From a virus, in IMG/VR virus record IMGVR_UViG_3300012685_000001, positions 49,468 to 113,467 of that record: a DNA stretch of 64,000 nucleotides; one strand, given 5' to 3'. The notes beneath the pieces are model-generated. The model did not search any database. It saw only the letters and a list, made by a program, of their open reading frames with translations, and was not told the DNA's origin. How positions within the stretch are numbered: the first letter of the stretch is position 1; each line of letters starts with the position of its first letter. Positions 1-64,000 of the stretch are shown here, in pieces. Position numbers and translations under genes: made by a program.

Positions 1-69
1 CACGCTGTCTGGTAGGCAATTTACGGTACAAAGCCGTAGGGATTGTTCCTAGCTACACTATCTTAAAGT

Positions 70-519
70 TTACTTACCAGTTCCAGCCTTGGCAGTAATG
101 GTAGGAACACCAGCTTCACCAGAAGGAACATAGATAACAGTGTTATTCTTACCAGACTTAGCAATACTTTCCATTGCCTGAATCATCTCGAACTGAACAT
201 AAAGAGGAGTCAGAGTCTTGGCAATCTCATCCTGAGCCTTACGAACACCTACAGACTGCTCATAGCGAATCTGAGCCTGCTGCTTTGTAACTTGAATACG
301 CTGCTTCTGATTACGAATCTCAATATCCGTTACCTTAACAGTATTATTCGCGTGAATCAATGCGATATTAGCGTTATTCTTAGCATCCGCAGTATTTTGA
401 CTACGACTGAATGCCTTGAAGCCTGCTGTAGCACCCATGATAATACCTAGCAGAAGAAACAATCCAAGCGCGCCTGCCAGAACAATCCTGACACCATTCT
501 TAAAATCTTCCTTGTCCAC
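70..519 (-). CDS. SPFH/prohibitin-like C-terminal membrane protein
   Basis: 149 residues. One membrane segment lies near residues 12-32, followed by a polar, probably helical stretch. The part around residues 80-118 (YEQSVGVRKAQDEIAKTL, then LYVQFEMIQAME) and the ending VIYVPSGE resemble the C-terminal tail of phage and bacterial stomatin/prohibitin (SPFH) proteins, but the SPFH core domain itself is missing. It is probably a short single-pass membrane protein facing the cytoplasm. It lies beside the tRNA array. The family link is a pattern impression and the function is unknown. Confidence 0.75.
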   Translation of the reverse strand: MDKEDFKNGVRIVLAGALGLFLLLGIIMGATAGFKAFSRSQNTADAKNNANIALIHANNTVKVTDIEIRNQKQRIQVTKQQAQIRYEQSVGVRKAQDEIAKTLTPLYVQFEMIQAMESIAKSGKNNTVIYVPSGEAGVPTITAKAGTGK

Positions 520-553
520 TGTGCTCCCAATTAGTATTCCATTTAAACTAACG

Positions 554-636
554 TGATTCGGGTGGGATTCGAACCCACGTAGGATTTCTCCGGCAGATTA
601 AGAGTCTGCTCCAATTGGCCGCTCTGGCACCGAATC
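554..636 (-). tRNA. tRNA, anticodon CTT, on a class II (Tyr-like) body
   Basis: Seven-base acceptor stem (GATTCGG with CCGAATC), discriminator A, perfect T arm and a five-base anticodon stem with loop CTCTTAA, giving anticodon CTT (Lys, AAG). The variable region is long, with a small arm, and the D-arm and anticodon-arm sequence is close to bacterial tRNA-Tyr. The anticodon therefore disagrees with the body type. No CCA is encoded. Confidence 0.85.
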
Positions 637-683
637 ATGTCCCGGTTCTTTCTTATAGGGGAACCGCGCTACTAAGACCCAAG

Positions 684-755
684 TGGAGCTACGGGGACTC
701 GAACCCCGAATTGAAGTATGCAAAACTTCCGTGTTACCGTTCACACTATAGCCCC
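684..755 (-). tRNA. tRNA-Ala(TGC)
   Basis: Cloverleaf with acceptor GGGGCTA/TAGCTCC, anticodon stem GAAGT/ACTTC and loop TTTGCAT giving TGC; T arm CGGGG-TTCGAGT-CCCCG. Discriminator A, no encoded CCA. Confidence 0.93.
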
Positions 756-759
756 ATTG

Positions 760-780
760 TGAGGACTTAACCGGTCCTCA
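760..780 (-). other. 7-bp hairpin between Ro60 and tRNA-Ala
   Basis: TGAGGAC and GTCCTCA flank a 7-base loop. There is no T run on the minus strand, so it looks more like an RNA processing or stability hairpin than a terminator. Confidence 0.5.
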
Positions 781-810
781 GCGGGTATAACTACTTTAGC
801 AGACTAGATC

Positions 811-2391
811 TTACTTTGCAACCCAAGGCCACGTCTGTGATATTCCAGCTTCTATCAAAGGAATCATCTGGAAACCCTTGTCAGTCAGTCCACCAAAGGT
901 GTGACGCTTCTTGGAACCAGATTCACTCTGGCCAACAGCATACCCTCCGAGGTTCCAGGTGTAGACAGGAACATTAGCAGGTACAGAAGCAACAGGATCT
1001 CCACCGTAACCATTGTACTGCTCATCAGTGATGATCACAATACGGTCATGGTTCTTGAAGTTGCCGTTGACTGCTCCACGGGTATCAGTTCCACCCATGC
1101 TCTTGAACTTACTCAGCATAGGAAGAACAGACTGACCCTTACGGAAAGAAACTGTTTCGAAAGAAGGTCCACGCCATGCGTCACCAAACTGTACCAGATC
1201 TGCATTTTCAGCACGAAGTGCTAGTGCTGAACCAAAGATAGCAGCCGTGTCAGCTCTGTCAAGTCCCTGAGTTCCTCCGTTAGAAGTAAACATGGAACCA
1301 GAACGGTCAACCAGAACCAGTGTACGTCCCTTCAGAGAAGGCACATTGCTCAGAGAAGCCTCAAGGGCAGTCTCAAGCGCCGCAGCGATCTGAAGAGTAT
1401 CCTTGTTGGCCTGGTAAGCAGCAAGGAATCGGAAAGGGAACTGCTTACTCTTGGCAACCTGCGCAGGATCAGCAAGTTTTGCAAGAACATTCTGCATCAC
1501 TGGGACACTAATTCGGGCATCCTGGAAGTTCCGCAAGTTTCGAAGAAGTGCCATATATCCCATGGAAGGAATAACAGCTTCCCAGGCAACAGCATCCATA
1601 GGACCCTGAAGCCATCCGGAAAGAGCTTCCCAAGTCATTCCAGCATTCTTCATACGAGTAGCGTCCAGAAGGCCAGTAACTATTGCGCCCTTACGGTTTT
1701 CTACTGGAATACGCATTATATACTTTCGCGTATTAATCATCTCTAGTACGCCTGGAACAATCTCTACATTTCCATAACGACTAGCAAGAGCGTACTTGAA
1801 CAACTGCTCCTGAATCTCGTTATCAGGCTTAGGGTGAGTCAACTGAAGAACATCCGCGAAACGGTATCCCACAGAAGTATCGTACTTAAGAAGACTGTAC
1901 TCGTTATACAACTTCTTGGCACCATCCGCAACACCCTTCTTAAGGAAGGATGGGAAGTTCTTCCCGTACTTGGACTCGTAATAAGCCAGCACCTCACCAG
2001 GCTCATCAGCACGAGCCATAGAAGCGGCTACAAGGCCCCTAGGAGTCCCATTCAGCTGTCCTGAGTCCCAAAGGGCCTTGGCACCTTCTACACCCGCTAC
2101 AATCGCCGCTGAACGCATGAAGGCAGAGTTACGAAGCCAATAGACGAAACCGGCAAACCAGAATGAATTAGTTACCGCTACTTCGGCACACAACTTGGAG
2201 AAACGGTCATCACGGCTCTTGGCGTTCTCATAGAACGTATCCTGACCGACAAAGTTGGAAACTGCTAGCAAGAACAACTCAGATTGCTTAGTGCGCACAA
2301 AACCTGCCTTGAAGTCAGCATTCAGTGCTGCCTGAGTAGTCTTGACAGGAGAAGTAGTTCCTGTCTTCTTTACCTGATTGAACTTGCCCAT
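811..2391 (-). CDS. rsr: Ro60 orthologue (TROVE domain plus vWA domain)
   Basis: 526 residues, close to the usual length of Ro60. The N-terminal two thirds match the TROVE HEAT-like ring that in other Ro60 proteins holds misfolded RNA ends in its central hole and Y RNA on its outer surface. The C-terminal third is a von Willebrand A domain with a full MIDAS: VDRSGSM (DxSxS) near residue 363, the Thr in GGTDTRGA, and the Asp in IITDEQ. Start ATG at 2391 lies 3 bases after the stop of the DUF1653 gene, so the two are co-transcribed. Three Y-RNA-like elements lie just upstream on the same strand. In Deinococcus and Salmonella, Ro60 and Y RNA assist RNA degradation by PNPase and RNA quality control; that role here is inferred. 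Identification as Ro60 is secure from domain order and MIDAS. Confidence 0.95.
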   Translation of the reverse strand: MGKFNQVKKTGTTSPVKTTQAALNADFKAGFVRTKQSELFLLAVSNFVGQDTFYENAKSRDDRFSKLCAEVAVTNSFWFAGFVYWLRNSAFMRSAAIVAGVEGAKALWDSGQLNGTPRGLVAASMARADEPGEVLAYYESKYGKNFPSFLKKGVADGAKKLYNEYSLLKYDTSVGYRFADVLQLTHPKPDNEIQEQLFKYALASRYGNVEIVPGVLEMINTRKYIMRIPVENRKGAIVTGLLDATRMKNAGMTWEALSGWLQGPMDAVAWEAVIPSMGYMALLRNLRNFQDARISVPVMQNVLAKLADPAQVAKSKQFPFRFLAAYQANKDTLQIAAALETALEASLSNVPSLKGRTLVLVDRSGSMFTSNGGTQGLDRADTAAIFGSALALRAENADLVQFGDAWRGPSFETVSFRKGQSVLPMLSKFKSMGGTDTRGAVNGNFKNHDRIVIITDEQYNGYGGDPVASVPANVPVYTWNLGGYAVGQSESGSKKRHTFGGLTDKGFQMIPLIEAGISQTWPWVAK

Positions 2392-2393
2392 TC

Positions 2394-2597
2394 CTATTCT
2401 CCTATTTTCTCGAAGCGCTGCATACGCTTGCCATCACGTTCTACATACTCAACAAACTCATCCAAGGGACGCACTGAAATAATACCTTCTCCGTATTGCG
2501 CTGCATAAACTACCACATCTCTCCAGGAGCCACTTTCCTTTGCAAGGAACAGGACTCTATAAAGATTTCCCTTAAAATGTCTGTACAGCCCATGCAT
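2394..2597 (-). CDS. DUF1653 domain protein
   Basis: 67 residues with the DUF1653 pattern: YRHFKGNLYRVLFLAKES, then VVYAAQYGEG, VRPLDEFVE and a final RFEKIGE. The family is a small beta-rich domain of unknown function. A good ribosome binding site (AGGAGG) precedes ATG 2597. It sits between the Y-RNA-like cluster with its terminator and the Ro60 gene, and its stop nearly abuts the Ro60 start, which suggests a shared transcript with Ro60. Confidence 0.9.
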   Translation of the reverse strand: MHGLYRHFKGNLYRVLFLAKESGSWRDVVVYAAQYGEGIISVRPLDEFVEYVERDGKRMQRFEKIGE

Positions 2598-2634
2598 TGT
2601 ACCTCCTATTTGTAGTACGTTATAAAGACAAAAA

Positions 2635-2675
2635 TAATCCCCTAAAGTGCACTTTCGTGGACCTAGGGGAGGATT
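2635..2675 (-). terminator. terminator after the Y-RNA-like cluster
   Basis: On the minus strand a stem of AATCC(T)CCCCTA with TAGGGGATT is followed by ATTTTT. It separates the Y-RNA-like elements from the DUF1653-Ro60 unit. The loop holds the palindrome AAAGTGCACTTT. Confidence 0.75.
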
Positions 2676-2699
2676 AAAAATAAGTTCCTAGAAAAAACG

Positions 2700-2812
2700 G
2701 TGTGAGGTATATAGGCGCCGTGCCTTAAGGGGACTCGAACCCCATGGGTTTCATATCAATTGAAGTAACCCCGTACCTTCGCATCGGAACTAAAAAATAT
2801 ACCCTAGAAAAA
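2700..2812 (-). ncRNA. Y-RNA-like element 1 with reduced tRNA-like part
   Basis: An outer 7-bp stem (GGTATAT at 2797-2803 with ATATACC at 2706-2712) encloses the shared core CGATGCGAAG...GTTACTTC (2762-2786), then a T-arm-like hairpin (GGGG-TTCGAGT-CCCC, 2729-2743) and a 4-bp hairpin AGGC/GCCT (2713-2726) where a tRNA acceptor would be. No D arm is seen. The sequence CCGATG in the 5' strand recalls the conserved CCGATG of metazoan Y RNAs. It lies upstream of the Ro60 gene on the same strand. The call rests on the shared core, the tRNA-like part and the Ro60 context. Confidence 0.7.
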
Positions 2813-2817
2813 ACGCC

Positions 2818-2882
2818 TACAGTGCTTTTTGATTACCAATTAATTTGAAGTAACTGTTGGCTACGCATCGGGTAAAGCTTAT
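2818..2882 (-). ncRNA. Y-RNA-like element 2, minimal
   Basis: Carries the same core as its neighbours (CGATGCGTAG...GTTACTTC, 2847-2870), closed by a stem of TTACC (2833-2837) with GGTAA (2871-2875) that extends with GCT/AGC. The inner hairpin is GTAGC with GTTAC. It has no T arm or D arm, so it looks like an isolated Ro60-binding stem. The following TTTTTTCTAG on the minus strand may mark its 3' end. Confidence 0.65.
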
Positions 2883-2911
2883 TAAATTTTAAGACAACTA
2901 GAAAGAATCGA

Positions 2912-3036
2912 TAAAAGTGCTTTATATACCGCTGCTCTGCCTCTGAGCTATCAACCATAGAATTGGCTGAGAAGGATTCGAACCTTCGTCACGCGGTTCC
3001 CTGTGAAGTAACTCTTATCTTCGCATCGCTGTCAAA
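2912..3036 (-). ncRNA. Y-RNA-like element 3 with circularly permuted tRNA module
   Basis: Reading the minus strand: core CGATGCGAAG...GTTACTTC (3005-3028), then ACCGC (2993-2997), a 5-bp T arm with loop TTCGAAT (2971-2987), the strand TCAGCCA (2964-2970), a 6-base linker, the strand TGGTTGA (2951-2957), a D arm GCTC-AGAGGCA-GAGC (2934-2948) and GCGGT (2928-2932). TGGTTGA and TCAGCCA pair over 7 bp as an acceptor stem, but in reversed order, so the acceptor is a closed hairpin and the anticodon stem (ACCGC/GCGGT) is the open entry helix. This permuted tRNA layout is the known plan of bacterial YrlA-type Y RNAs. Confidence 0.8.
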
Positions 3037-3099
3037 CTTAATAGATCTAGGCTCGGTTTCGACGTATCGCAAGATACCCTTGACAGCGTTCAAGATCTA
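3028..3099 (-). other. pseudoknot-prone leader upstream of Y element 3
   Basis: TAGATCT (3092-3098) can pair with AGATCTA (3042-3048), while GCTGTCAA can pair with TTGACAGC (3028-3035 with 3080-3087). The two helices interleave as an H-type pseudoknot or compete. A GTATC/GATAC hairpin lies inside. It may be the 5' part of Y element 3 or a separate spacer RNA. Confidence 0.5.
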
Positions 3100-3101
3100 A
3101 G

Positions 3102-3173
3102 CTCCCCGAGCTGGATTCGAACCAACAACCGGTCGATTAACAGTCGACTGCTCTGCCGTTGAGCTATCGGGGA
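3102..3173 (-). tRNA. tRNA-Asn(GTT)
   Basis: Acceptor TCCCCGA/TCGGGGA, anticodon stem GTCGA/TCGAC with loop CTGTTAA, anticodon GTT, discriminator G as expected for Asn, T arm GTTGG-TTCGAAT-CCAAC. Confidence 0.94.
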
Positions 3174-3209
3174 ATAAACTCTATCCACAAGGAATAGAGT
3201 GGGTTAAAG

Positions 3210-3280
3210 CATGAGCTAGAGGATTTGAACCCCTGATGGCGGTTTTGGAGACCGACGTGTTACCACTACACTAAGCTCAT
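3210..3280 (-). tRNA. tRNA-Trp(CCA)
   Basis: Acceptor ATGAGCT/AGCTCAT, anticodon loop CTCCAAA giving CCA, T arm AGGGG-TTCAAAT-CCTCT, discriminator G. Confidence 0.93.
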
Positions 3281-3296
3281 ATAGCCCGAAGGCTTT

Positions 3297-3503
3297 TTAC
3301 TTAATGGAATTAACTACACCCGTTAATCCATCATTTACAGCACTAGGCAACTTAGGGAAATTCGATACTAGCAGAATTCCCAACATAGCACCAGCTACAA
3401 TCTGTGCCAGCTTCCAACCCTGCTTAAGAATCATAACCCAAATGAAAAGGCCCATAAGTCCAACAGTTCCCAGAAAAGCTAGCAATGCATGTACGATATC
3501 CAT
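3297..3503 (-). CDS. small two-helix membrane protein
   Basis: 68 residues with two hydrophobic segments (about 4-25 and 33-50) and a short positively charged link between them. Such size and topology is seen in small phage membrane proteins, including holins, but the lysin lies far away and no holin motif can be named. It sits between tRNA genes on the same transcript. Confidence 0.75.
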   Translation of the reverse strand: MDIVHALLAFLGTVGLMGLFIWVMILKQGWKLAQIVAGAMLGILLVSNFPKLPSAVNDGLTGVVNSIK

Positions 3504-3578
3504 TTTTAACCCCTAGAAAGTTCTTGTCGTTCTCTCTTGTAGAGAAGCTTACTAAGAGTCTGTGGTACTTGTCAAGCG

Positions 3579-3652
3579 TACCCACGGGGAGACTCGAACT
3601 CCCAAGCTCCTGAGCCTAAATCAGACGGCTGTGCCAATTCGCCTACGCGGGC
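3579..3652 (-). tRNA. tRNA-Leu(TAG), short variable loop
   Basis: Acceptor GCCCGCG/CGTGGGT, anticodon stem TCTGA/TCAGG with loop TTTAGGC, anticodon TAG. D arm GGC...GCC is Leu-like, but the variable region is only about 5 bases where bacterial Leu tRNAs normally have a long arm. Confidence 0.85.
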
Positions 3653-3730
3653 ATAACGACAGTTTTTCTGAAGCCCAACTTAATGGATGCTGTGCTCTTA
3701 CTCTTCAGAGGGCAAACTGTCAACCTCACG

Positions 3731-3803
3731 TAGTCCTAGTCGGATTCGAACCGACGCTGTCTCGATTTTAAGTCGAGTGTCTCTTCCGCTGGACTATAGG
3801 ACC
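3731..3803 (-). tRNA. tRNA-Leu(TAA), class I body
   Basis: Acceptor GGTCCTA/TAGGACT, anticodon stem CTCGA/TCGAG with loop CTTAAAA, anticodon TAA for UUA codons. The variable loop is 5 bases, so the body is class I. UUA is the rare codon served by bldA in Streptomyces. Confidence 0.87.
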
Positions 3804-3809
3804 AAGATG

Positions 3810-3883
3810 TACTCCTGGTCGGACTTGAACCGACACTAACATAGTTTTTGAAACTATGGCCTCTGCCTTTGGGCTACAGGAGC
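3810..3883 (-). tRNA. tRNA-Leu(CAA), class I body
   Basis: Acceptor GCTCCTG/CAGGAGT, anticodon stem ATAGT/ACTAT with loop TTCAAAA, anticodon CAA for UUG. Short variable loop, T arm GTCGG-TTCAAGT-CCGAC. Confidence 0.85.
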
Positions 3884-3887
3884 ATAA

Positions 3888-3926
3888 GTGACTGTCTGGA
3901 TTCTCAATCCAGCGCCACTACACAGG
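3888..3926 (-). other. anticodon-arm-like hairpin (tRNA remnant or mimic)
   Basis: CTGGA-TTGAGAA-TCCAG has the shape of an anticodon arm (would read GAG, Leu) and is extended by GTGGC/GTCAC across an internal loop, but no T arm or acceptor stem follows: the next tRNA starts only a few bases away. It is either a decayed tRNA or a stand-alone stem-loop. Confidence 0.6.
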
Positions 3927-4027
3927 TCTTTAGCGTTTAGTCGGATCATATCTTGGCTTTTATTGTACCCCGGAAGTACCTTCCAAGTCAAGACGACCGT
4001 GCCAGGAGTTACTGTGCAGAACCTAAG

Positions 4028-4099
4028 AGCCCCTTCCCGGATTCGAACCGAGCACTTGGCTTTACAAGAGCCGCGCTTTTCCTACTAAGCTAAAGGGGC
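4028..4099 (-). tRNA. tRNA-Thr(TGT)
   Basis: Acceptor GCCCCTT/AAGGGGC, anticodon stem CGGCT/AGCCA region with loop CTTGTAA, anticodon TGT, T arm CTCGG-TTCGAAT-CCGGG, discriminator T. Confidence 0.92.
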
Positions 4100-4136
4100 A
4101 AGAGCCATTGTACTAGCCCAATGGCAGGCTGTCAAA

Positions 4137-4451
4137 TTATGCTGTTCCAGTAGCCTTTACCACAAAGTCAACAGTATCGTTGATTGTGGCCTGGTTTGGA
4201 AGAGCGAAAATAGAAGCGTTGTTCACATAAATTGTCCATAGGACAGAAGTATTGGTAACAGGATTACCCGCACTATCAGTTCCAGGTGGAACATCAGCGG
4301 CTACGATCTTCTTAACTGTAGAAGGAAAAGAAGCACCACCAGTTGTAGGAACTGGGAACACATAAGCATGTCCATCAGCACATACAATAGCACGAACCTG
4401 ATCATTCACAGCAAGAGCATCAGCCTTGACAATCGTATAAGTAAAAGCCAT
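4137..4451 (-). CDS. hypothetical protein, beta-rich
   Basis: 104 residues, starts MAFTYTIVKADALAVNDQVR. It alternates short hydrophobic and polar stretches with many Val, Thr and Asn, as in small beta-sandwich virion or fibre proteins, but no family is recognised. It is flanked by tRNA genes on the same strand. Confidence 0.75.
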   Translation of the reverse strand: MAFTYTIVKADALAVNDQVRAIVCADGHAYVFPVPTTGGASFPSTVKKIVAADVPPGTDSAGNPVTNTSVLWTIYVNNASIFALPNQATINDTVDFVVKATGTA

Positions 4452-4527
4452 TTGTTAAACCTTTCTAGAAAGAATCACTAAGTGATCGCTATAGCTCTTT
4501 TAGTATATAGCATTTCTTTCTGAAACG

Positions 4528-4599
4528 TACTCCCAGAGGGAATTGAACCCTCTCCTAGGGCTTGAAAGACCCTGATACTAACCAATATACGATGGGAGC
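4528..4599 (-). tRNA. tRNA-Glu(TTC)
   Basis: Acceptor GCTCCCA/TGGGAGT, anticodon stem AGGGT/GCCCT with loop CTTTCAA, anticodon TTC, T arm GAGGG-TTCAATT-CCCTC. Confidence 0.93.
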
Positions 4600-4606
4600 A
4601 TAACTA

Positions 4607-4674
4607 TTGGTACTGGTAGGGCTTGCCAGTTTCGAACCTGAGCCTTTATTTCAGAATATCCAATAGTATCCGAG
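4607..4674 (-). ncRNA. tRNA-like structured element
   Basis: An 8-bp closing stem (ACTATTGG with CCAATAGT) encloses a hairpin built from GGCT/AGCC and CAG/CTG around a T-loop-like GTTCGAAA. It has no anticodon arm. It resembles the reduced tRNA-like part of Y element 1, but lacks the CGATGCGAAG core, so its class is unknown. Confidence 0.5.
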
Positions 4675-4703
4675 TCTAGTCCCACACATACTTCCTCGGT
4701 TTG

Positions 4704-4798
4704 CAGCATCTGACAGGCAGCCTATCTCTATTTTGGCTAGCAGTCTGTAGGAACCGATAGTCCCCCAGCGTCTTTGAGACCTGTCAGGTGTGATGCTG
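4704..4798 (-). ncRNA. structured RNA of about 95 nt, unknown class
   Basis: A 14-bp stem formed by 4704-4717 with 4780-4787 and 4793-4798, perfect apart from one 5-base bulge, encloses two further hairpins (GTCT/AGAC and AGCC/GGCT). It fills the gap between tRNA-like sequence and tRNA-Glu(CTC). No known RNA family was recognised. Confidence 0.6.
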
Positions 4799-4799
4799 G

Positions 4800-4870
4800 T
4801 ATCCCTACAGGGACTTGAACCCTGTCTAGAAGCTTGAGAAGCTTCCGTACTACCTATATACGATAGGGAC
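4800..4870 (-). tRNA. tRNA-Glu(CTC)
   Basis: Acceptor GTCCCTA/TAGGGAT, anticodon stem GAAGC/GCTTC with loop TTCTCAA, anticodon CTC, T arm CAGGG-TTCAAGT-CCCTG. Confidence 0.92.
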
Positions 4871-4904
4871 ATTAAATGGCTGGTGGTCTCATCCCTTGTG
4901 ACTA

Positions 4905-5039
4905 CTTAGTTCCGCCACAAACTAAGGTTACTCCCACCTGGCGGCACCTGCCCTGTCTCTCGCCGCTTCTCAACACGGACAACCATCGGATGGATGATAA
5001 TTGCCAGCACTCCTCGTCTTCCTTGTGGGAAGAACTGTC
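4905..5039 (-). ncRNA. pseudoknotted spacer RNA
   Basis: A hairpin CTTAGTT/AACTAAG (4920-4926 with 4905-4911) has TGGCGG in its loop (4912-4917), and this pairs exactly with CCGCCA just upstream (4939-4944), an H-type pseudoknot. Further 5' on the RNA is a CTTCC/GGAAG hairpin. No reading frame of merit and no tRNA parts are present. Confidence 0.5.
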
Positions 5040-5052
5040 CATCACGTGCACG

Positions 5053-5124
5053 CGCCCCATACGGGAATTGAACCCGCCGATTCAAGCGTGACAAGCTTGT
5101 GACCACCCAGCAGTCTCATGGGGC
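5053..5124 (-). tRNA. tRNA-Asp(GTC)
   Basis: Acceptor GCCCCAT/ATGGGGC, anticodon stem CAAGC/GCTTG with loop TTGTCAC, anticodon GTC, discriminator G as expected for Asp. Confidence 0.93.
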
Positions 5125-5157
5125 AACAAAGTGCCCTTTAAGGTAGGACACAAACCT

Positions 5158-5460
5158 TTACTTCTTTAAATCTGTCTCAGGCCACGATAATATCGCCCTT
5201 TGCTCAACAACCGTACCATGGTTAACTACAGCTCGGGAAATATCTGAATAATCTTCGCCATACCGCAGAATTATCAAGTAGTTGTTGGGATAAAGCTTAG
5301 CAACCTCTTCCAGATCTGTCAACCAGGCATACCATTTGGAAGCTGACAGAGTTATATTTTCCTGCCACTCATCCCACTTGTAGCCAGAAGCACCATTGAG
5401 AACATCAGCTACAAAAGGTATATCTGTTCCATCTACTTCAAAATTTGAGTAATAACCCAT
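5158..5460 (-). CDS. hypothetical protein
   Basis: 100 residues, MGYYSNFEVDGTDIPFVADV..., rich in Trp, Tyr and acidic residues, so a compact cytosolic protein is likely. A purine-rich ribosome binding site precedes ATG 5460. No family is recognised. Confidence 0.8.
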   Translation of the reverse strand: MGYYSNFEVDGTDIPFVADVLNGASGYKWDEWQENITLSASKWYAWLTDLEEVAKLYPNNYLIILRYGEDYSDISRAVVNHGTVVEQRAILSWPETDLKK

Positions 5461-5477
5461 ATTTATCTCCTAACGCG

Positions 5478-5549
5478 CTGGAGTACTAGGATTCGAACCT
5501 AGACTGTCCTGATCCAAAGTCAGGTGGGCTGCCGTTACCCCATACTCCA
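5478..5549 (-). tRNA. tRNA-Gln(TTG)
   Basis: Acceptor TGGAGTA/TACTCCA, anticodon stem CCTGA/TCAGG with loop CTTTGGA, anticodon TTG, discriminator G. Confidence 0.93.
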
Positions 5550-5564
5550 AAGTGGTCCCTCGTG

Positions 5565-5621
5565 AGTGCCTTACCAAGATAATAGTCTTGACGCACTGCT
5601 TTTCAGTATCTTCCCGGCACT
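5565..5621 (-). ncRNA. three-way-junction-like spacer RNA
   Basis: AGTGCC and GGCACT (5565-5570 with 5616-5621) close a unit holding two hairpins, CAAGA/TCTTG (5575-5590) and ACTG/CAGT (5595-5607). It lies downstream of an ACTCTA/TAGAGT hairpin in a 300-base region between the two Gln tRNAs that has no credible gene. Confidence 0.45.
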
Positions 5622-5846
5622 TTCCCACACCTTTACCATGGTTATTACATGTGTTCCAGATTCGTTCTTTTCCCAATTCTGTACGAGCGTTTAACAACTC
5701 TACCTGCCAAAAGATAGAGTAAATGGTTGGACGTAGCTTGGCTTATCCCCAAGTTTCGACCTTGTCTTCATTTGCAACTTATCTAGAAAACGGCAAACTA
5801 TCATCCGGCTTATCCTTGCTCTTGTGCACTGAGCTTTGGCGTCCAG
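5622..5846 (-). other. gene-free spacer with local hairpins
   Basis: No good start site or reading frame. Visible structure: ACTCTA/TAGAGT near 5700-5720, CTTGG-GGATAAG-CCAAG near 5740-5756, and the 9-mer GGATAAGCC twice. The spacer is probably transcribed with the tRNAs. Confidence 0.4.
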
Positions 5847-5917
5847 CTCCCCGACCTAGATTCGAACTAAGTCTAACGGTGTCAGAGACCGTTGTGCTGC
5901 CGTTACACCATCGGGGA
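5847..5917 (-). tRNA. tRNA-Gln(CTG)
   Basis: Acceptor TCCCCGA/TCGGGGA, anticodon stem ACGGT/ACCGT with loop CTCTGAC, anticodon CTG, discriminator G. Confidence 0.92.
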
Positions 5918-5921
5918 ATAA

Positions 5922-6018
5922 ACTAGGTGCGGATTATAAATACCTTTATCGCTCCAGAAGAGCAGTTGGTCCCTAGCAACCAAAAATAGTGCCCTGCTAT
6001 TACTAGCTGTTTATGGGC
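5922..6018 (-). other. spacer with a run of small hairpins
   Basis: Four consecutive small hairpins on the minus strand: GCTA-GTAA-TAGC (a GNRA-type loop), TTGGT/ACCAA, GCTC/GAGC and ATAAA/TTTAT. No gene and no tRNA parts. Confidence 0.4.
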
Positions 6019-6022
6019 TAAG

Positions 6023-6095
6023 AGCGGTATGCCAGATTCGAACTGGCTCTTATAGTTTGGAAGACTATCGTGCTGCCGTTGAACACTAATACCGC
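6023..6095 (-). tRNA. tRNA-Gly(TCC)
   Basis: Acceptor GCGGTAT/ATACCGC, anticodon stem ATAGT/ACTAT with loop CTTCCAA, anticodon TCC, T arm GCCAG-TTCGAAT-CTGGC. Confidence 0.93.
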
Positions 6096-6099
6096 ATTG

Positions 6100-6190
6100 T
6101 ATGGATTTTTATTGACCGTGCTTCCCCGCAGGGGCTAGACTTCCATGTCGTATGACCTACCATACTTCAGACACACTAGGTCGTCAAACT
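6100..6190 (-). ncRNA. pseudoknot-prone spacer RNA
   Basis: A hairpin GTATG/CATAC has TAGGT in its loop that pairs with ACCTA upstream, again an H-type pseudoknot. A strong CCCC-TGC-GGGG hairpin follows. No gene. Confidence 0.4.
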
Positions 6191-6202
6191 GATCGAATTG
6201 GG

Positions 6203-6275
6203 AGCGCAGGTGGGAGTCAAACCCTACTACTTTCCAGGTTATGAGCCTGGTGAGACATCGTTTCTCTATCCGCGC
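6203..6275 (-). tRNA. divergent tRNA, anticodon CAT
   Basis: Anticodon arm CCAGG-CTCATAA-CCTGG and acceptor GCGCGGA/CCTGCGC are clear, with a mismatch at the last acceptor pair. The D loop lacks the usual GG and the T arm has only three good pairs with loop TTTGACT. It could be an initiator, an Ile2-type or a decayed Met tRNA. Confidence 0.7.
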
Positions 6276-6277
6276 AG

Positions 6278-6349
6278 TGGTTATGAAGGGACTCGAACCC
6301 TCGCGTACCGGGATATGAATCCGGCGCTCTGCCTCTGAGCTACATAACC
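6278..6349 (-). tRNA. tRNA-Met(CAT)
   Basis: Acceptor GGTTATG/CATAACC, D arm GCTC/GAGC, anticodon arm CCGGA-TTCATAT-CCCGG, T arm GAGGG-TTCGAGT-CCCTT, discriminator A. Likely elongator Met. Its 5' half is similar to the tRNA-like module of Y element 3. Confidence 0.92.
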
Positions 6350-6355
6350 ATAATC

Positions 6356-6400
6356 ATGGTTTTTTATTGTGTTCCGCTACGGGATAACCATAAACCCGTA
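6356..6400 (-). other. hairpin with loop pairing downstream
   Basis: TACGGG/CCCGTA (6378-6383 with 6395-6400) has an 11-base loop containing ATGGTT, which is complementary to AACCAT at 6356-6361, another possible pseudoknot between two tRNA genes. Confidence 0.4.
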
Positions 6401-6403
6401 AAG

Positions 6404-6474
6404 TGGCCCCCACCGGACTTGAACCGATATTCAGCGGGCTTCAACCGCTTGTATTTCCTTTATACGAAAGAGCC
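6404..6474 (-). tRNA. tRNA-Phe(GAA)
   Basis: Anticodon stem AGCGG/CCGCT with loop TTGAAGC, anticodon GAA, T arm ATCGG-TTCAAGT-CCGGT. The acceptor GGCTCTT/GGGGGCC relies on three G-T pairs. Confidence 0.9.
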
Positions 6475-6479
6475 ATAAT

Positions 6480-6549
6480 GAGTTATTACCTGGTATTGAA
6501 CATCATATCTATTATTTATTATGAGGATGTATATACGTGCTGATAACTC
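6480..6549 (-). other. spacer enclosed by a 7-bp stem
   Basis: GAGTTAT and ATAACTC bracket the spacer between tRNA-Phe and tRNA-Pro, with ACATC/GATGT inside. The interior is AT-rich and non-coding. Confidence 0.4.
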
Positions 6550-6553
6550 AAAG

Positions 6554-6625
6554 TCGGATGCCTCAGAGTCGAACTGAGTTTATCTTGGTCCCAAACCAAG
6601 CGGATTACCGTCTTCCTCGCACCCG
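6554..6625 (-). tRNA. tRNA-Pro(TGG)
   Basis: Acceptor CGGGTGC/GCATCCG, anticodon stem CTTGG/CCAAG with loop TTTGGGA, anticodon TGG, T arm CTCAG-TTCGACT-CTGAG. First tRNA after the candidate promoter. Confidence 0.92.
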
Positions 6626-6691
6626 AGAACTCCTAAAGATTGGATCCATTAACGAAAGAGATCTCTAGGAGCTTTTTAAGGAGGCTATGCC

Positions 6692-6720
6692 ATTATAACA
6701 TGTGGTCCAACAGCTCACAA
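6692..6720 (-). promoter_or_regulatory. candidate promoter of the tRNA array
   Basis: Minus strand -35 TTGTGA, 17-bp spacer, -10 TATAAT, located 67 bp before the first tRNA. Spacing and hexamers fit the host vegetative sigma factor. Confidence 0.6.
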
Positions 6721-6808
6721 GTCCCGAAGCTTGATGCCATTCTTGACATGATCTCTGCAAACCTTGATCTCTTTACCGTTATGGTACAAGATTACCGCAA
6801 CTGGAGTC

Positions 6809-7048
6809 TTATTGCAACGGGTCATCCAACAGCGGTTCTGTATTCCCGTCATCTGTTTTCTCCACGACTAGTTCTATCACATCATTACTCATTACCGCAA
6901 CTGTGATATATCCAGGTTCCGATGTTGTATCCAACACTAATCTAGTGGGAAGCATATTGTCAAGCAGATCTTGAGAAATTGTCCAGGAGCCCCCGAAGTT
7001 ATGGACAGCCAGAGCTAAGAACCTAGCAAGGTCTTGTTCAAGAGTCAA
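6809..7048 (-). CDS. hypothetical protein
   Basis: 79 residues, acidic at its C-terminus. Its start overlaps the end of the next upstream gene by about 10 bases, as in translationally coupled phage genes. No family recognised. Confidence 0.75.
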   Translation of the reverse strand: MTLEQDLARFLALAVHNFGGSWTISQDLLDNMLPTRLVLDTTSEPGYITVAVMSNDVIELVVEKTDDGNTEPLLDDPLQ

Positions 7049-7277
7049 GATGTTCTCTATTCTTCAGATCATTGAGAAGAGAAATCTTTTCATCAGTAAT
7101 TCTTTTAATAGTATCTTTCAGATAAGTTACTGACTCTTCCAGATCAGAAACATATTCTTGAGCACCAGAAGAAGCCAGAGAAACTAGCTTATCCAGTACT
7201 CTTCTGTCTTGTTCTGTTTCTGAATCAAGAATCTCTGTTAGAGAGAAATAAATAGAATCATATAGTTCTTGATTCAT
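7038..7277 (-). CDS. coiled-coil protein
   Basis: 79 residues, highly charged. Residues 40-75 (LEESVTYLKDTIKRITDEKISLLNDL region) show heptad leucine and isoleucine spacing. It overlaps the RHH gene upstream by 20 bases. Possible partner of that DNA-binding protein; function unknown. Confidence 0.8.
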   Translation of the reverse strand: MNQELYDSIYFSLTEILDSETEQDRRVLDKLVSLASSGAQEYVSDLEESVTYLKDTIKRITDEKISLLNDLKNREHLDS

Positions 7278-7470
7278 AAGAATCAGCCTCCTCTATTCTT
7301 TTTTCCATTTCTCTCTGATTATTAAGATTGTCAACCAAAGATTCAAGAACCTTACGAATATAGACTGTAATCCCTAATTCTTGGTAATCAGCTTGTTCCT
7401 TCAATATTTCTAATGTTTCCTTCTTTAATCTTAAGCTTCTGGAAACCATAGCCTTACTATCTTTGGTCAT
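7258..7470 (-). CDS. ribbon-helix-helix (CopG/Arc-like) DNA-binding protein
   Basis: 70 residues from ATG 7470, chosen because GGGAAGAAG precedes it; the frame is open further upstream. The N-terminal strand MVSRSLRLKKETLEILKEQA followed by helix-turn-helix spacing and VYIRKVLESLVDNL fits ribbon-helix-helix repressors. A C-terminal charged helix follows. It is the first gene of its operon, next to a divergent promoter region, so autoregulation is likely. Confidence 0.75.
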   Translation of the reverse strand: MTKDSKAMVSRSLRLKKETLEILKEQADYQELGITVYIRKVLESLVDNLNNQREMEKRIEEADSYESRTI

Positions 7471-7517
7471 ATATTCTTCTTCCCTATATTCTTGGTATCT
7501 CTTCTTTATAGAGAGTA

Positions 7518-7545
7518 AGTATACAGGTTGTAGTACATATGTCAA
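7518..7545 (-). promoter_or_regulatory. candidate leftward promoter
   Basis: -35 TTGACA, 16-bp spacer, -10 TATACT on the minus strand, about 40 bp before ATG 7470. Confidence 0.65.
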
Positions 7546-7600
7546 TCTCTGGTTGGATCTTCATATTCAAGCTTGGGAGTGAAACGACCAAGCTATATGG

Positions 7601-7629
7601 TTGACAACCACTGTTTTTAGAGATAGATA
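7601..7629 (+). promoter_or_regulatory. candidate rightward promoter
   Basis: -35 TTGACA, 17-bp spacer, -10 TAGATA on the plus strand. It would drive the rightward block starting at 7788 with a leader of about 150 bases. Confidence 0.6.
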
Positions 7630-7787
7630 TAAAGACTCTTAAGTACTTAACTGCTTTTCGATCGGTAGTGCTTCGATCATACACTACGGTTCCAAAGAAT
7701 TCAACCTGTTGTGGTTCATACCTGAAACTGGTAGAGTATTTCCTATGGGGAAACTGGTGGGGGTACTACTAGTACAGAGGTTTTAAT

Positions 7788-7946
7788 ATGAAGTTCAAAG
7801 ATATGGACATTGGTAAAGAAGGTCCCTGCATGGTACCTGGCCACAAGAAAAGTCATGTACTGACTCTGGCTTGCTGGTCAGAAATGCGCAGATTCCTTTT
7901 CGACCATAGTTTTCAGGATTTTCTGGAAAAAGTAGAGAACAAGTAG
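7788..7946 (+). CDS. small hypothetical protein
   Basis: 52 residues, MKFKDMDIGKEGPC..., ending in the charged helix FQDFLEKVENK. AGAGG lies 8 bases before the ATG. First gene of the rightward block. No family recognised. Confidence 0.7.
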   Translation: MKFKDMDIGKEGPCMVPGHKKSHVLTLACWSEMRRFLFDHSFQDFLEKVENK

Positions 7947-7958
7947 AAAGAGAAAATT

Positions 7959-8366
7959 ATGGGACATGCTGTACAGAGTTCCTACTACTCTAAACCTATA
8001 ACACGGATTCACGCTGATTTCAACGGTATCTGTGCTTTGTGCGGTGAGTATGTAGAACTTGAAGACGCGTCCCGTGACCATATTATCCCCCGTTCAGCAG
8101 GCGGGGGTAATGGTCCGGACAATATCCAATTGACACATAAGCAATGCAACAACCTGAAGGGAGATCAGCTTTATCCATCTGACTGGCAGGAACAACTTAG
8201 TCGCAATATTCCTATTCCACGCGACTACCATTGCCAATATTGTTCCAATCCGATAGTCAAGTGGCATAAGTCACAAGGCTATACAACAAAGATTTTCCAC
8301 AAGGGAAAGATCATATTCCTCCACACCTGGTGCAATGAAGGGAGATTGAAGTATGGACGCCTTTGA
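7959..8366 (+). CDS. HNH endonuclease
   Basis: 135 residues. The HNH/ββα-metal core is clear: CALCGEYV, then SRDHIIPRSAGGGNGPDNIQLTHKQCNNLKG, with zinc-type Cys pairs. A second Cys pair, CQYCSNP, lies at residues 92-95. Most likely a free-standing homing-type or general DNA endonuclease. Its 3' end overlaps the next gene. Confidence 0.9.
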   Translation: MGHAVQSSYYSKPITRIHADFNGICALCGEYVELEDASRDHIIPRSAGGGNGPDNIQLTHKQCNNLKGDQLYPSDWQEQLSRNIPIPRDYHCQYCSNPIVKWHKSQGYTTKIFHKGKIIFLHTWCNEGRLKYGRL

Positions 8367-63279: not shown

Positions 63280-63421
63280 AGAATTCAATAGCCTGAGCTA
63301 CCCAGGCTTCACCCTTCTGTCTGATCATCATATCGATATAGGCCTGATCAAGAGCGGCAGTCTTAGTTTCAGAGTGCCATTTGATATACGCTTCTGTACT
63401 TTCGAAATCAGAAATTTCCAT
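63263..63421 (-). CDS. small hypothetical protein
   Basis: 52 residues, helical, MEISDFESTEAYIKWHSETK.... Overlaps the Pnkp-like gene's end by 14 bases. Confidence 0.65.
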   Translation of the reverse strand: MEISDFESTEAYIKWHSETKTAALDQAYIDMMIRQKGEAWVAQAIEFYEDTE

Positions 63422-64000
63422 ATGCTACTTGCGCCACCTTTACATTCAGTTTACGGATACGGCGGACAACACGGTCACGGTCATCGAAATGCATAAGGAC
63501 ATTGTACTTGCCACGAATGTGCTCGTCATACATTTCCTGCTTCACTACCGTGTCATTACGCTTGTCTTCCGTCTTACGCATATAAAACTCGTCATACATA
63601 ATATGTGCATCGCGATACCACTGAACAGTCATGTCACGCCACGTATCTGGGCGGCCGGACATACCGATGAGTGTGATGGTATCAAAGGCGCCCTGCTCAT
63701 AAATAATCTGAAGCAGCATCTTCATATTCGGATCAACTGAATCAGTATAGCAACGTGGGTAATCATAAGGAGAACGATTGTGATGAGCAGTCGTACCATC
63801 AGTATCAAAGACTACACACCAAGGGAGCTTGGGATCATATTCCAATGGGGCAGACAGACCAGGAACATCATTCATGAACTCTTCAGTCAATCGCCACGGC
63901 TTGTCAAGGAGCTTGGCCATATTCTCAATGACCTTAACACCAACAGATCGTTCTCCACGTCCGGCACGGAGAATGTCACGAGCTGCACATGTCTGCATGG
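63408..64000 (-). CDS. polynucleotide kinase-3'-phosphatase (T4 Pnkp-like), 5' end cut by window
   Basis: The visible 197 codons hold the end of the kinase domain (RAGRGERSVGVKVIENM) and the whole HAD phosphatase domain: VVFDTDGTTAHHNRSPYDYPRCYTDSVDP (motif I DxDGT), IGMSGRPD (motif II), KQEMYDEHI and MHFDDRDRVVRRIRKLNVKVAQVAYGNF (motif IV). This is the C-terminal half of T4 Pnkp almost motif for motif. The kinase P-loop should lie beyond 64000. With RNA ligase it heals and seals broken tRNAs. Confidence 0.92.
   Translation of the reverse strand, partial: MQTCAARDILRAGRGERSVGVKVIENMAKLLDKPWRLTEEFMNDVPGLSAPLEYDPKLPWCVVFDTDGTTAHHNRSPYDYPRCYTDSVDPNMKMLLQIIYEQGAFDTITLIGMSGRPDTWRDMTVQWYRDAHIMYDEFYMRKTEDKRNDTVVKQEMYDEHIRGKYNVLMHFDDRDRVVRRIRKLNVKVAQVAYGNF

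What the first reader, a model, noticed from the sequence alone, without database searches (positions are those of the whole stretch)
811..3036. Phage Ro60 locus with three Y-RNA-like elements
A complete Ro60 (TROVE plus MIDAS vWA) gene lies directly downstream, on the same strand, of three RNA elements that share a core CGATGCG(A/T)AG...GTTACTTC. In cellular systems Ro60 works with Y RNAs encoded nearby. The arrangement looks like a self-contained phage RNP, with two full-size and one minimal RNA. If real, it could steer host RNA decay or tRNA quality control during infection. Seen: motif repeats, stems, gene order. Inferred: binding and function.
Basis: partly seen in the sequence, partly recalled or inferred. 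Interest (0 to 1): 0.93.

Follow-up and report, generated by a model that had tools for sequence, protein, structure and literature searches.

The report
Phage Ro60 with tRNA-mimicking Y RNAs
A phage related to Streptomyces viruses carries, inside its tRNA gene cluster, the RNA-handling protein Ro60 and three small partner RNAs, one of them built as a rearranged tRNA; the kind is already known in bacteria and phages, but here the partner RNAs belong to an ordered set kept across a whole phage group.

Summary
Three RNA elements lie on the minus strand upstream of a complete Ro60 gene (811-2391): E1 3033-2893, E2 2874-2800, E3 2791-2683. They are bacterial-type Y RNAs. Across 63 units in 16 phage loci, the stem joining the 5' and 3' ends covaries (91% Watson-Crick against 35% shuffled). 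E1 carries a circularly permuted tRNA module with compensatory changes in three of its four helices. A covariance model built from E1 and its orthologues finds E2 and E3, which were not used to build it, and Y RNAs in most of 80 actinobacterial Ro60 loci. This is therefore a Ro60 (Rsr)/Y RNA (YrlA-type) locus, a kind already reported in bacteria and phages. Less described, as far as I could read: the phage group keeps up to five Y RNA slots in fixed order with graded tRNA likeness; this genome has slots 2, 4 and 5. A terminator-like hairpin separates the RNAs from Ro60, and the genome has a T4-type RNA ligase and a polynucleotide kinase but no PNPase. Best guess: a phage-owned Ro60-Y RNA particle that recruits host PNPase or tRNA enzymes for RNA quality control or tRNA repair. 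Expression, binding and function are not shown.

The parts
811..2391 (-). Ro60 (Rsr) protein, TROVE plus vWA, 526 aa
2893..3033 (-). E1: Y RNA, slot 2, 141 nt, with permuted tRNA module (YrlA type)
2928..2997 (-). tRNA-like module of E1: anticodon-type stem 2997-2993/2932-2928, T-arm 2987-2971, acceptor strands 2970-2964/2957-2951, D-arm 2948-2934
2800..2874 (-). E2: minimal Y RNA, slot 4, 75 nt, no tRNA arms
2683..2791 (-). E3: Y RNA, slot 5, 109 nt, with T-arm only (T-arm 2743-2729)
2630..2670 (-). Terminator-like hairpin (2670-2638) and T-rich tail between the RNA array and the protein genes
   Evidence: same position in the 16 loci compared
2394..2597 (-). DUF1653 ORF (67 aa) just before Ro60; absent at this place in the relatives; not thought part of the RNP
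3101..3173 (-). tRNA-Asn, upstream border of the array
683..755 (-). tRNA-Ala, downstream border

Best explanation
The locus encodes a phage-owned Ro60 (Rsr) ribonucleoprotein. Shown by sequence and comparison: three Y RNAs, each with an end-pairing stem that carries the conserved GATGCGNAG...TACTTC core; one of them (E1) with a permuted tRNA module in the place of the Y RNA's loop; and a Ro60 protein encoded next to them. Inferred: Ro60 binds the shared basal stem of all three RNAs. E1, through its tRNA-like face, brings Ro60 to a host protein that recognises tRNA, most likely host PNPase as in the Deinococcus RYPER complex, or tRNA-processing enzymes. E2 (no arms) would occupy or gate Ro60 without a tether, and E3 (T-arm only) would be intermediate. 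The particle would deal with damaged or misfolded RNA during infection, probably alongside the phage's own T4-type RNA ligase and polynucleotide kinase and its tRNA cluster.
For: Core found 3 times, 0 expected. Closing stem anchored only by the 3' motif: 90.9% Watson-Crick in pairs 2-5 over 63 units, shuffles 35.4 +/- 3.8%, maximum 48.8% of 5000. E1 orthologues: 98.9% of cells paired, 16 of 34 pairs doubly changed, 0/500 shuffles, slid versions 39-57%. E2 orthologues: 6 of 8 inner-helix pairs doubly changed. Model R1 finds E2 (E=2e-7) and E3 (E=3e-5) and nothing beyond the three units in the 113-kb genome at E<=0.01, and finds Y RNAs upstream of Ro60 in most of 80 actinobacterial loci, best 86.8 bits. 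The Ro60 model matches only TROVE/Ro60 structures at E<=0.001; K169 and H186 align with K170 and H187 of vertebrate Ro60 and are invariant. RNA ligase (RNA_lig_T4_1) and PNKP phosphatase domain in the same genome. RYPER mechanism from PMC6181284 and PMC8394870.
Against: No binding, transcript or phenotype data for this phage. No PNPase in the genome, so the tether target is unproven. Single-sequence folding is only mildly better than shuffles (z -1.9, -1.4, -0.3). Rfam's YrlA model scores E1 below its gathering cut-off (31.4 against 69), although Ro60-linked Y RNAs of four actinobacteria also miss it (32-54 bits).
Confidence: 0.72

Rival explanations
1. Decoy: the Y RNAs mimic tRNA without an anticodon loop and act by occupying host tRNA-directed nucleases or modifying enzymes, protecting the phage tRNAs; Ro60 mainly stabilises the RNAs.
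For: E1 is a full permuted tRNA module inside a tRNA cluster. Competitive inhibition of an anticodon nuclease by YrlA has been proposed for Salmonella (PMC7790460).
Against: E2 has no tRNA features and its slot is kept in 14 of 16 loci, which a decoy alone does not explain. No nuclease identified.
Confidence: 0.15
2. Ro60 with minimal Y RNAs works as an RNA chaperone or quality-control factor for misfolded RNA alone, with no tether to a nuclease; the tRNA module only stabilises the RNA or serves its processing from the tRNA transcript.
For: Vertebrate Ro60 binds misfolded RNAs and structures of such complexes exist (one search hits 2i91, 9nep). No PNPase in the genome. The array sits in a tRNA cluster, where tRNA-processing enzymes act.
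Against: The tRNA module of slot 2 is kept with compensatory changes, including an acceptor-type stem and the D-arm, more than simple stability needs.
Confidence: 0.1
3. The elements are decayed tRNA genes or tRNA-gene fragments with no Ro60 link.
For: E1 and E3 have tRNA T-arms; relatives' units are annotated or called as tRNA genes.
Against: Covarying closing and inner stems, a core shared by all units, a place next to Ro60 in all relatives, and a covariance-model match to bacterial Y RNAs.
Confidence: 0.02

Closest known systems
Bacterial YrlA RNA / Rsr (Ro60) systems (Deinococcus, Salmonella; Rfam RF02553)
   Same: Y RNA next to Ro60, end-pairing basal stem, tRNA-like module with T-arm, acceptor-type stem and D-arm in permuted order, aligned directly by the Rfam model.
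   Different: In a phage tRNA cluster; three units here and up to five in relatives; no RtcB in the genome; E1 scores below the Rfam gathering cut-off.
Actinobacterial chromosomal Ro60/Y RNA loci (Streptomyces, Kitasatospora, Actinomadura)
   Same: Y cores upstream of Ro60 in all 80 loci; model R1, built on phage RNAs, finds Y RNAs in most of them.
   Different: 1-3 cores counted against 3-5 in most of the phage group; core mostly GGTGCG rather than GATGCG; Ro60 of the phage group forms its own clade.
Other phage Ro60 proteins and Y RNAs (mycobacteriophages in Chen et al. 2014; putative in Listeria phage CKA15; Thermus phage phiLo Ro60 structure, PDB 9l5y)
   Same: Phage-encoded Ro60, with Y RNAs reported or suspected near it (PMC12282133).
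   Different: Other phage groups; an ordered multi-slot array was not found described in the papers I could read.
T4-type tRNA repair (Pnkp plus Rnl1)
   Same: RNA ligase of the T4 Rnl1 family and PNKP in the same genome.
   Different: Ro60/Y RNA is not part of T4's system as I know it; a functional link here is inference.

Membership tests
Ro60/Rsr (TROVE) protein | TROVE domain above curated cut-off | tested here: met
   62.7 bits, cut-off 23
Ro60/Rsr (TROVE) protein | Helical-repeat ring plus vWA fold | tested here: met
   AlphaFold2 pLDDT 84; all 13 PDB matches at E<=0.001 are Ro60/TROVE, TM-scores 0.59-0.73
Ro60/Rsr (TROVE) protein | MIDAS residues DxSxS...T...D | tested here: met
   invariant in 26 sequences
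Ro60/Rsr (TROVE) protein | Binds Y RNA | not testable with these tools
   K169 and H186, aligned with K170/H187 of vertebrate Ro60 (their role in RNA binding is own knowledge), are invariant
Y RNA (bacterial, YrlA type) | Stem formed by the 5' and 3' ends with a conserved core | tested here: met
Y RNA (bacterial, YrlA type) | tRNA-like module (T-arm, acceptor-type stem, D-arm) in at least one RNA of the locus | tested here: met
   E1; E2 lacks it, E3 has only the T-arm
Y RNA (bacterial, YrlA type) | Encoded next to Ro60 | tested here: met
   E3 ends about 290 bases before the Ro60 start codon
Y RNA (bacterial, YrlA type) | Rfam RF02553 gathering score | tested here: not met
   31.4 against 69 bits; Ro60-linked Y RNAs of four actinobacteria also miss it at 32-54 bits, so the cut-off does not discriminate here. 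For that reason I still file E1 with the YrlA type by anatomy.
Y RNA (bacterial, YrlA type) | Expressed, bound by Ro60, carries tRNA modifications | not testable with these tools
   needs RNA from infected cells
RYPER (Rsr-Y RNA-PNPase) | PNPase tethered by the Y RNA | not testable with these tools
   no PNPase in the phage genome; a host PNPase would be needed
rsr-yrlBA-rtcBA RNA repair operon | RtcB next to Rsr | tested here: not met
   no RtcB in the genome; a T4-type ligase and PNKP are present instead

The most novel reading that the evidence does not exclude
The phage group carries a dedicated, ordered set of up to five Y RNAs, each slot orthologous across phages and graded from a bare Ro60-binding stem to a full permuted tRNA. 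Each would tether Ro60 to a different host or phage partner, giving the phage a modular RNA-surveillance particle tied to its tRNA repair genes.
Probability: 0.3. Interest if true: 0.7.

Novelty: new member of a known kind. Interest (0 to 1): 0.47.

Why it matters
What bacterial Y RNAs do is still poorly known. A phage group with several natural Y RNAs per Ro60, from minimal to full tRNA mimic, in phages grown on laboratory Streptomyces (Alone3 and LuckySocke on S. lividans), makes the role of the tRNA-like module directly testable by deleting single slots. It also corrects public annotation, where some of these RNAs are listed as tRNA-Arg or tRNA-Ser genes, and it suggests that Rfam's YrlA cut-off misses Y RNAs of actinobacteria and their phages.

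Tried and rejected
Rfam at gathering threshold gave only tRNAs; the permissive search was needed. Single-sequence folding z-scores did not decide it. The 3' motif TTTCTAG alone is not enriched in the window (14 against 10.8 expected), so it counts only by position. A first closing-stem count chose the 3' end by best pairing and was replaced by a motif-anchored one. A sigma-70-type promoter scan found no site directly before the array. The primary papers on bacterial Y RNAs (Chen 2014; Sim and Wolin 2018; Sim 2020) are not held, so their content is taken from citing papers. Recent capture of Ro60 from a Streptomyces host was considered and rejected: the phage group is one clade apart from host Ro60. 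Decayed tRNA genes rejected (see rivals).

Full report
WHAT IS THERE. The window is part of a 113,467-base virus record whose nearest named relatives by Ro60 are Streptomyces phages pSt2308, BRock, GiJojo, Alone3 and LuckySocke (62-64% identical). A complete Ro60 gene lies at 811-2391 on the minus strand. Upstream of it on the same strand are three RNA elements, E1 (3033-2893), E2 (2874-2800) and E3 (2791-2683). The core GATGCGNAG...TACTTC occurs nowhere else in the window and is not expected by chance. The set lies between tRNA-Asn and tRNA-Ala within an 18-tRNA cluster, the same place as in the annotated relatives. A small DUF1653 ORF and a terminator-like hairpin lie between E3 and Ro60, so 'directly downstream' needs a small correction.

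ARE THE RNAS REAL. Each unit has a stem joining its ends, and this stem differs from unit to unit and phage to phage while staying paired. With the 3' end anchored only by its motif, pairs 2 to 5 are Watson-Crick in 90.9% of 63 units from 16 loci, against 35.4 +/- 3.8% after shuffling, maximum 48.8% in 5000. Many units are related by descent, so the shuffles overstate independence; but the stem sequence changes together with its partner both between slots and within slots.

E1 IS A PERMUTED tRNA WITHIN A Y RNA. The fold of E1 and of 14 slot-2 units shows, after the basal stem and an inner helix, an anticodon-type stem, then T-arm, acceptor 3' strand, a short loop, acceptor 5' strand, UA, and D-arm. 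This is the order of YrlA, and Rfam's YrlA model aligns to it (31.4 bits, E=6e-5). With this structure 98.9% of cells pair and 16 of 34 pairs have changed on both sides; no shuffle of 500 reaches the observed values, and partners slid by 1-3 columns pair in 39-57%. The structure was derived from the same alignment, which favours it over slid versions. The double changes fall in the closing, inner, anticodon-type, T and acceptor-type helices; the D-stem never varies and says nothing.

E2 AND E3. E2 is a minimal Y RNA: basal stem and an inner helix with 6 of 8 pairs doubly changed among 14 slot-4 units, no tRNA arms. E3 keeps a T-arm, while some orthologues also have a D-arm-like part (for example L002); the consensus fold of 16 slot-5 units has 14 of 21 pairs doubly changed. 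A covariance model built from slot-2 RNAs only (R1) finds E2 (E=2e-7) and E3 (E=3e-5) end to end, and only the three units in the whole genome at E<=0.01. Session E-values from R1 are rough.

AN ORDERED ARRAY. In the phage group the units fall into five slots by position and closing stem; 62 of 63 units have their nearest sequence neighbour in the same slot of another phage. Slot labels were partly assigned from the closing stem, so this test is not wholly independent. All five slots are seen in six loci (L001, L003, L004, L014, L015, L100); this genome has slots 2, 4 and 5. Ro60 of the group forms one clade with full support, next to the Arthrobacter phage Atuin group and apart from Streptomyces host Ro60, so the protein has been passed on within phages rather than recently taken from the host.

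SEPARATE EXPRESSION. Between the last Y RNA and the next ORF a hairpin with a T-rich tail is visible in all 16 loci compared, with different sequence in each; the computed minimum-energy folds show it in most. It is a likely terminator or attenuator, which would let the RNAs be made in excess of Ro60. That is inference.

LINK TO CELLULAR Y RNAS. All 80 actinobacterial Ro60 loci fetched have at least one core of the GGTGCG/GATGCG...TACTTC type upstream, and R1 finds Y RNAs in most of them, up to 86.8 bits. Rfam's YrlA model gives four such loci 32-54 bits, also below its cut-off of 69. E1's shortfall is therefore a matter of the model's cut-off.

THE PROTEIN. The AlphaFold2 model (pLDDT 84) matches only Ro60/TROVE structures at E<=0.001, among them Thermus phage phiLo Ro60, the Ro autoantigen with RNA, human Ro60 and Deinococcus Rsr. 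MIDAS residues and the counterparts of vertebrate K170 and H187 are invariant; that these two residues matter for Y RNA binding is own knowledge.

HOW IT MAY WORK. In Deinococcus, Y RNA holds Rsr on PNPase and directs it to structured RNA (PMC6181284, PMC8394870). This phage has no PNPase and no RtcB but has a T4-type RNA ligase and a PNKP, as does GiJojo by annotation. The most likely reading is a phage Ro60 particle whose slot-2 RNA reaches host PNPase or tRNA enzymes through its tRNA-like face and acts in RNA quality control or tRNA repair. Only the anatomy and the conservation are shown; expression, binding, partner and effect are inferred. The Ro-like protein, RNA ligase and polynucleotide kinase of mycobacteriophage LeBron were each toxic on overexpression (PMC13148394), which fits an active role in RNA metabolism but does not define it.

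KNOWN OR NEW. Y RNAs next to Ro60 have been reported in bacteria and mycobacteriophages (Chen et al. 2014, as cited in PMC12282133), and suspected in Listeria phage CKA15; Ro/TROVE proteins in jumbo phages have been linked to RNA repair (PMC7824862). This is a new member of that kind. The ordered multi-slot array with graded tRNA likeness was not found described in the papers I could read, but the primary papers were not available, so I do not claim it as new.

Noticed in passing
L003 3269-3343; L004 3274-3347; L098 3282-3352: Slot-5 Y RNAs are called tRNA genes by ARAGORN, and are annotated so in the GenBank records of GiJojo (tRNA-Arg), Alone3 and LuckySocke (tRNA-Ser).
   Followed up: yes
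L014 2563-2726; L004 5467-5699: manA RNA (RF01745) match above its gathering score in L014 (57.1 bits) and below it in L004 (47.8), both inside tRNA clusters of relatives; none in window 1-8000.
   Followed up: partly
2394-2597: A DUF1653 ORF sits between the Y RNAs and Ro60 in this genome but not in the annotated relatives at this place.
   Followed up: partly
2630-2670: Hairpin with T-rich tail, of different sequence in each phage, separates the Y RNA array from the Ro60 gene; it is followed by a conserved AACGTACCAC-like stretch near the ribosome-binding site.
   Followed up: partly
63411-63992 (record 112878-113459) and record 8-433: The polynucleotide kinase gene is split over the two ends of the record, so the record is probably a circular or circularly permuted genome.
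   Followed up: no
L009 2729-3481: In Streptomyces phage Kela an annotated RNA ligase gene directly precedes Ro60, another link of Ro60 with RNA repair.
   Followed up: no
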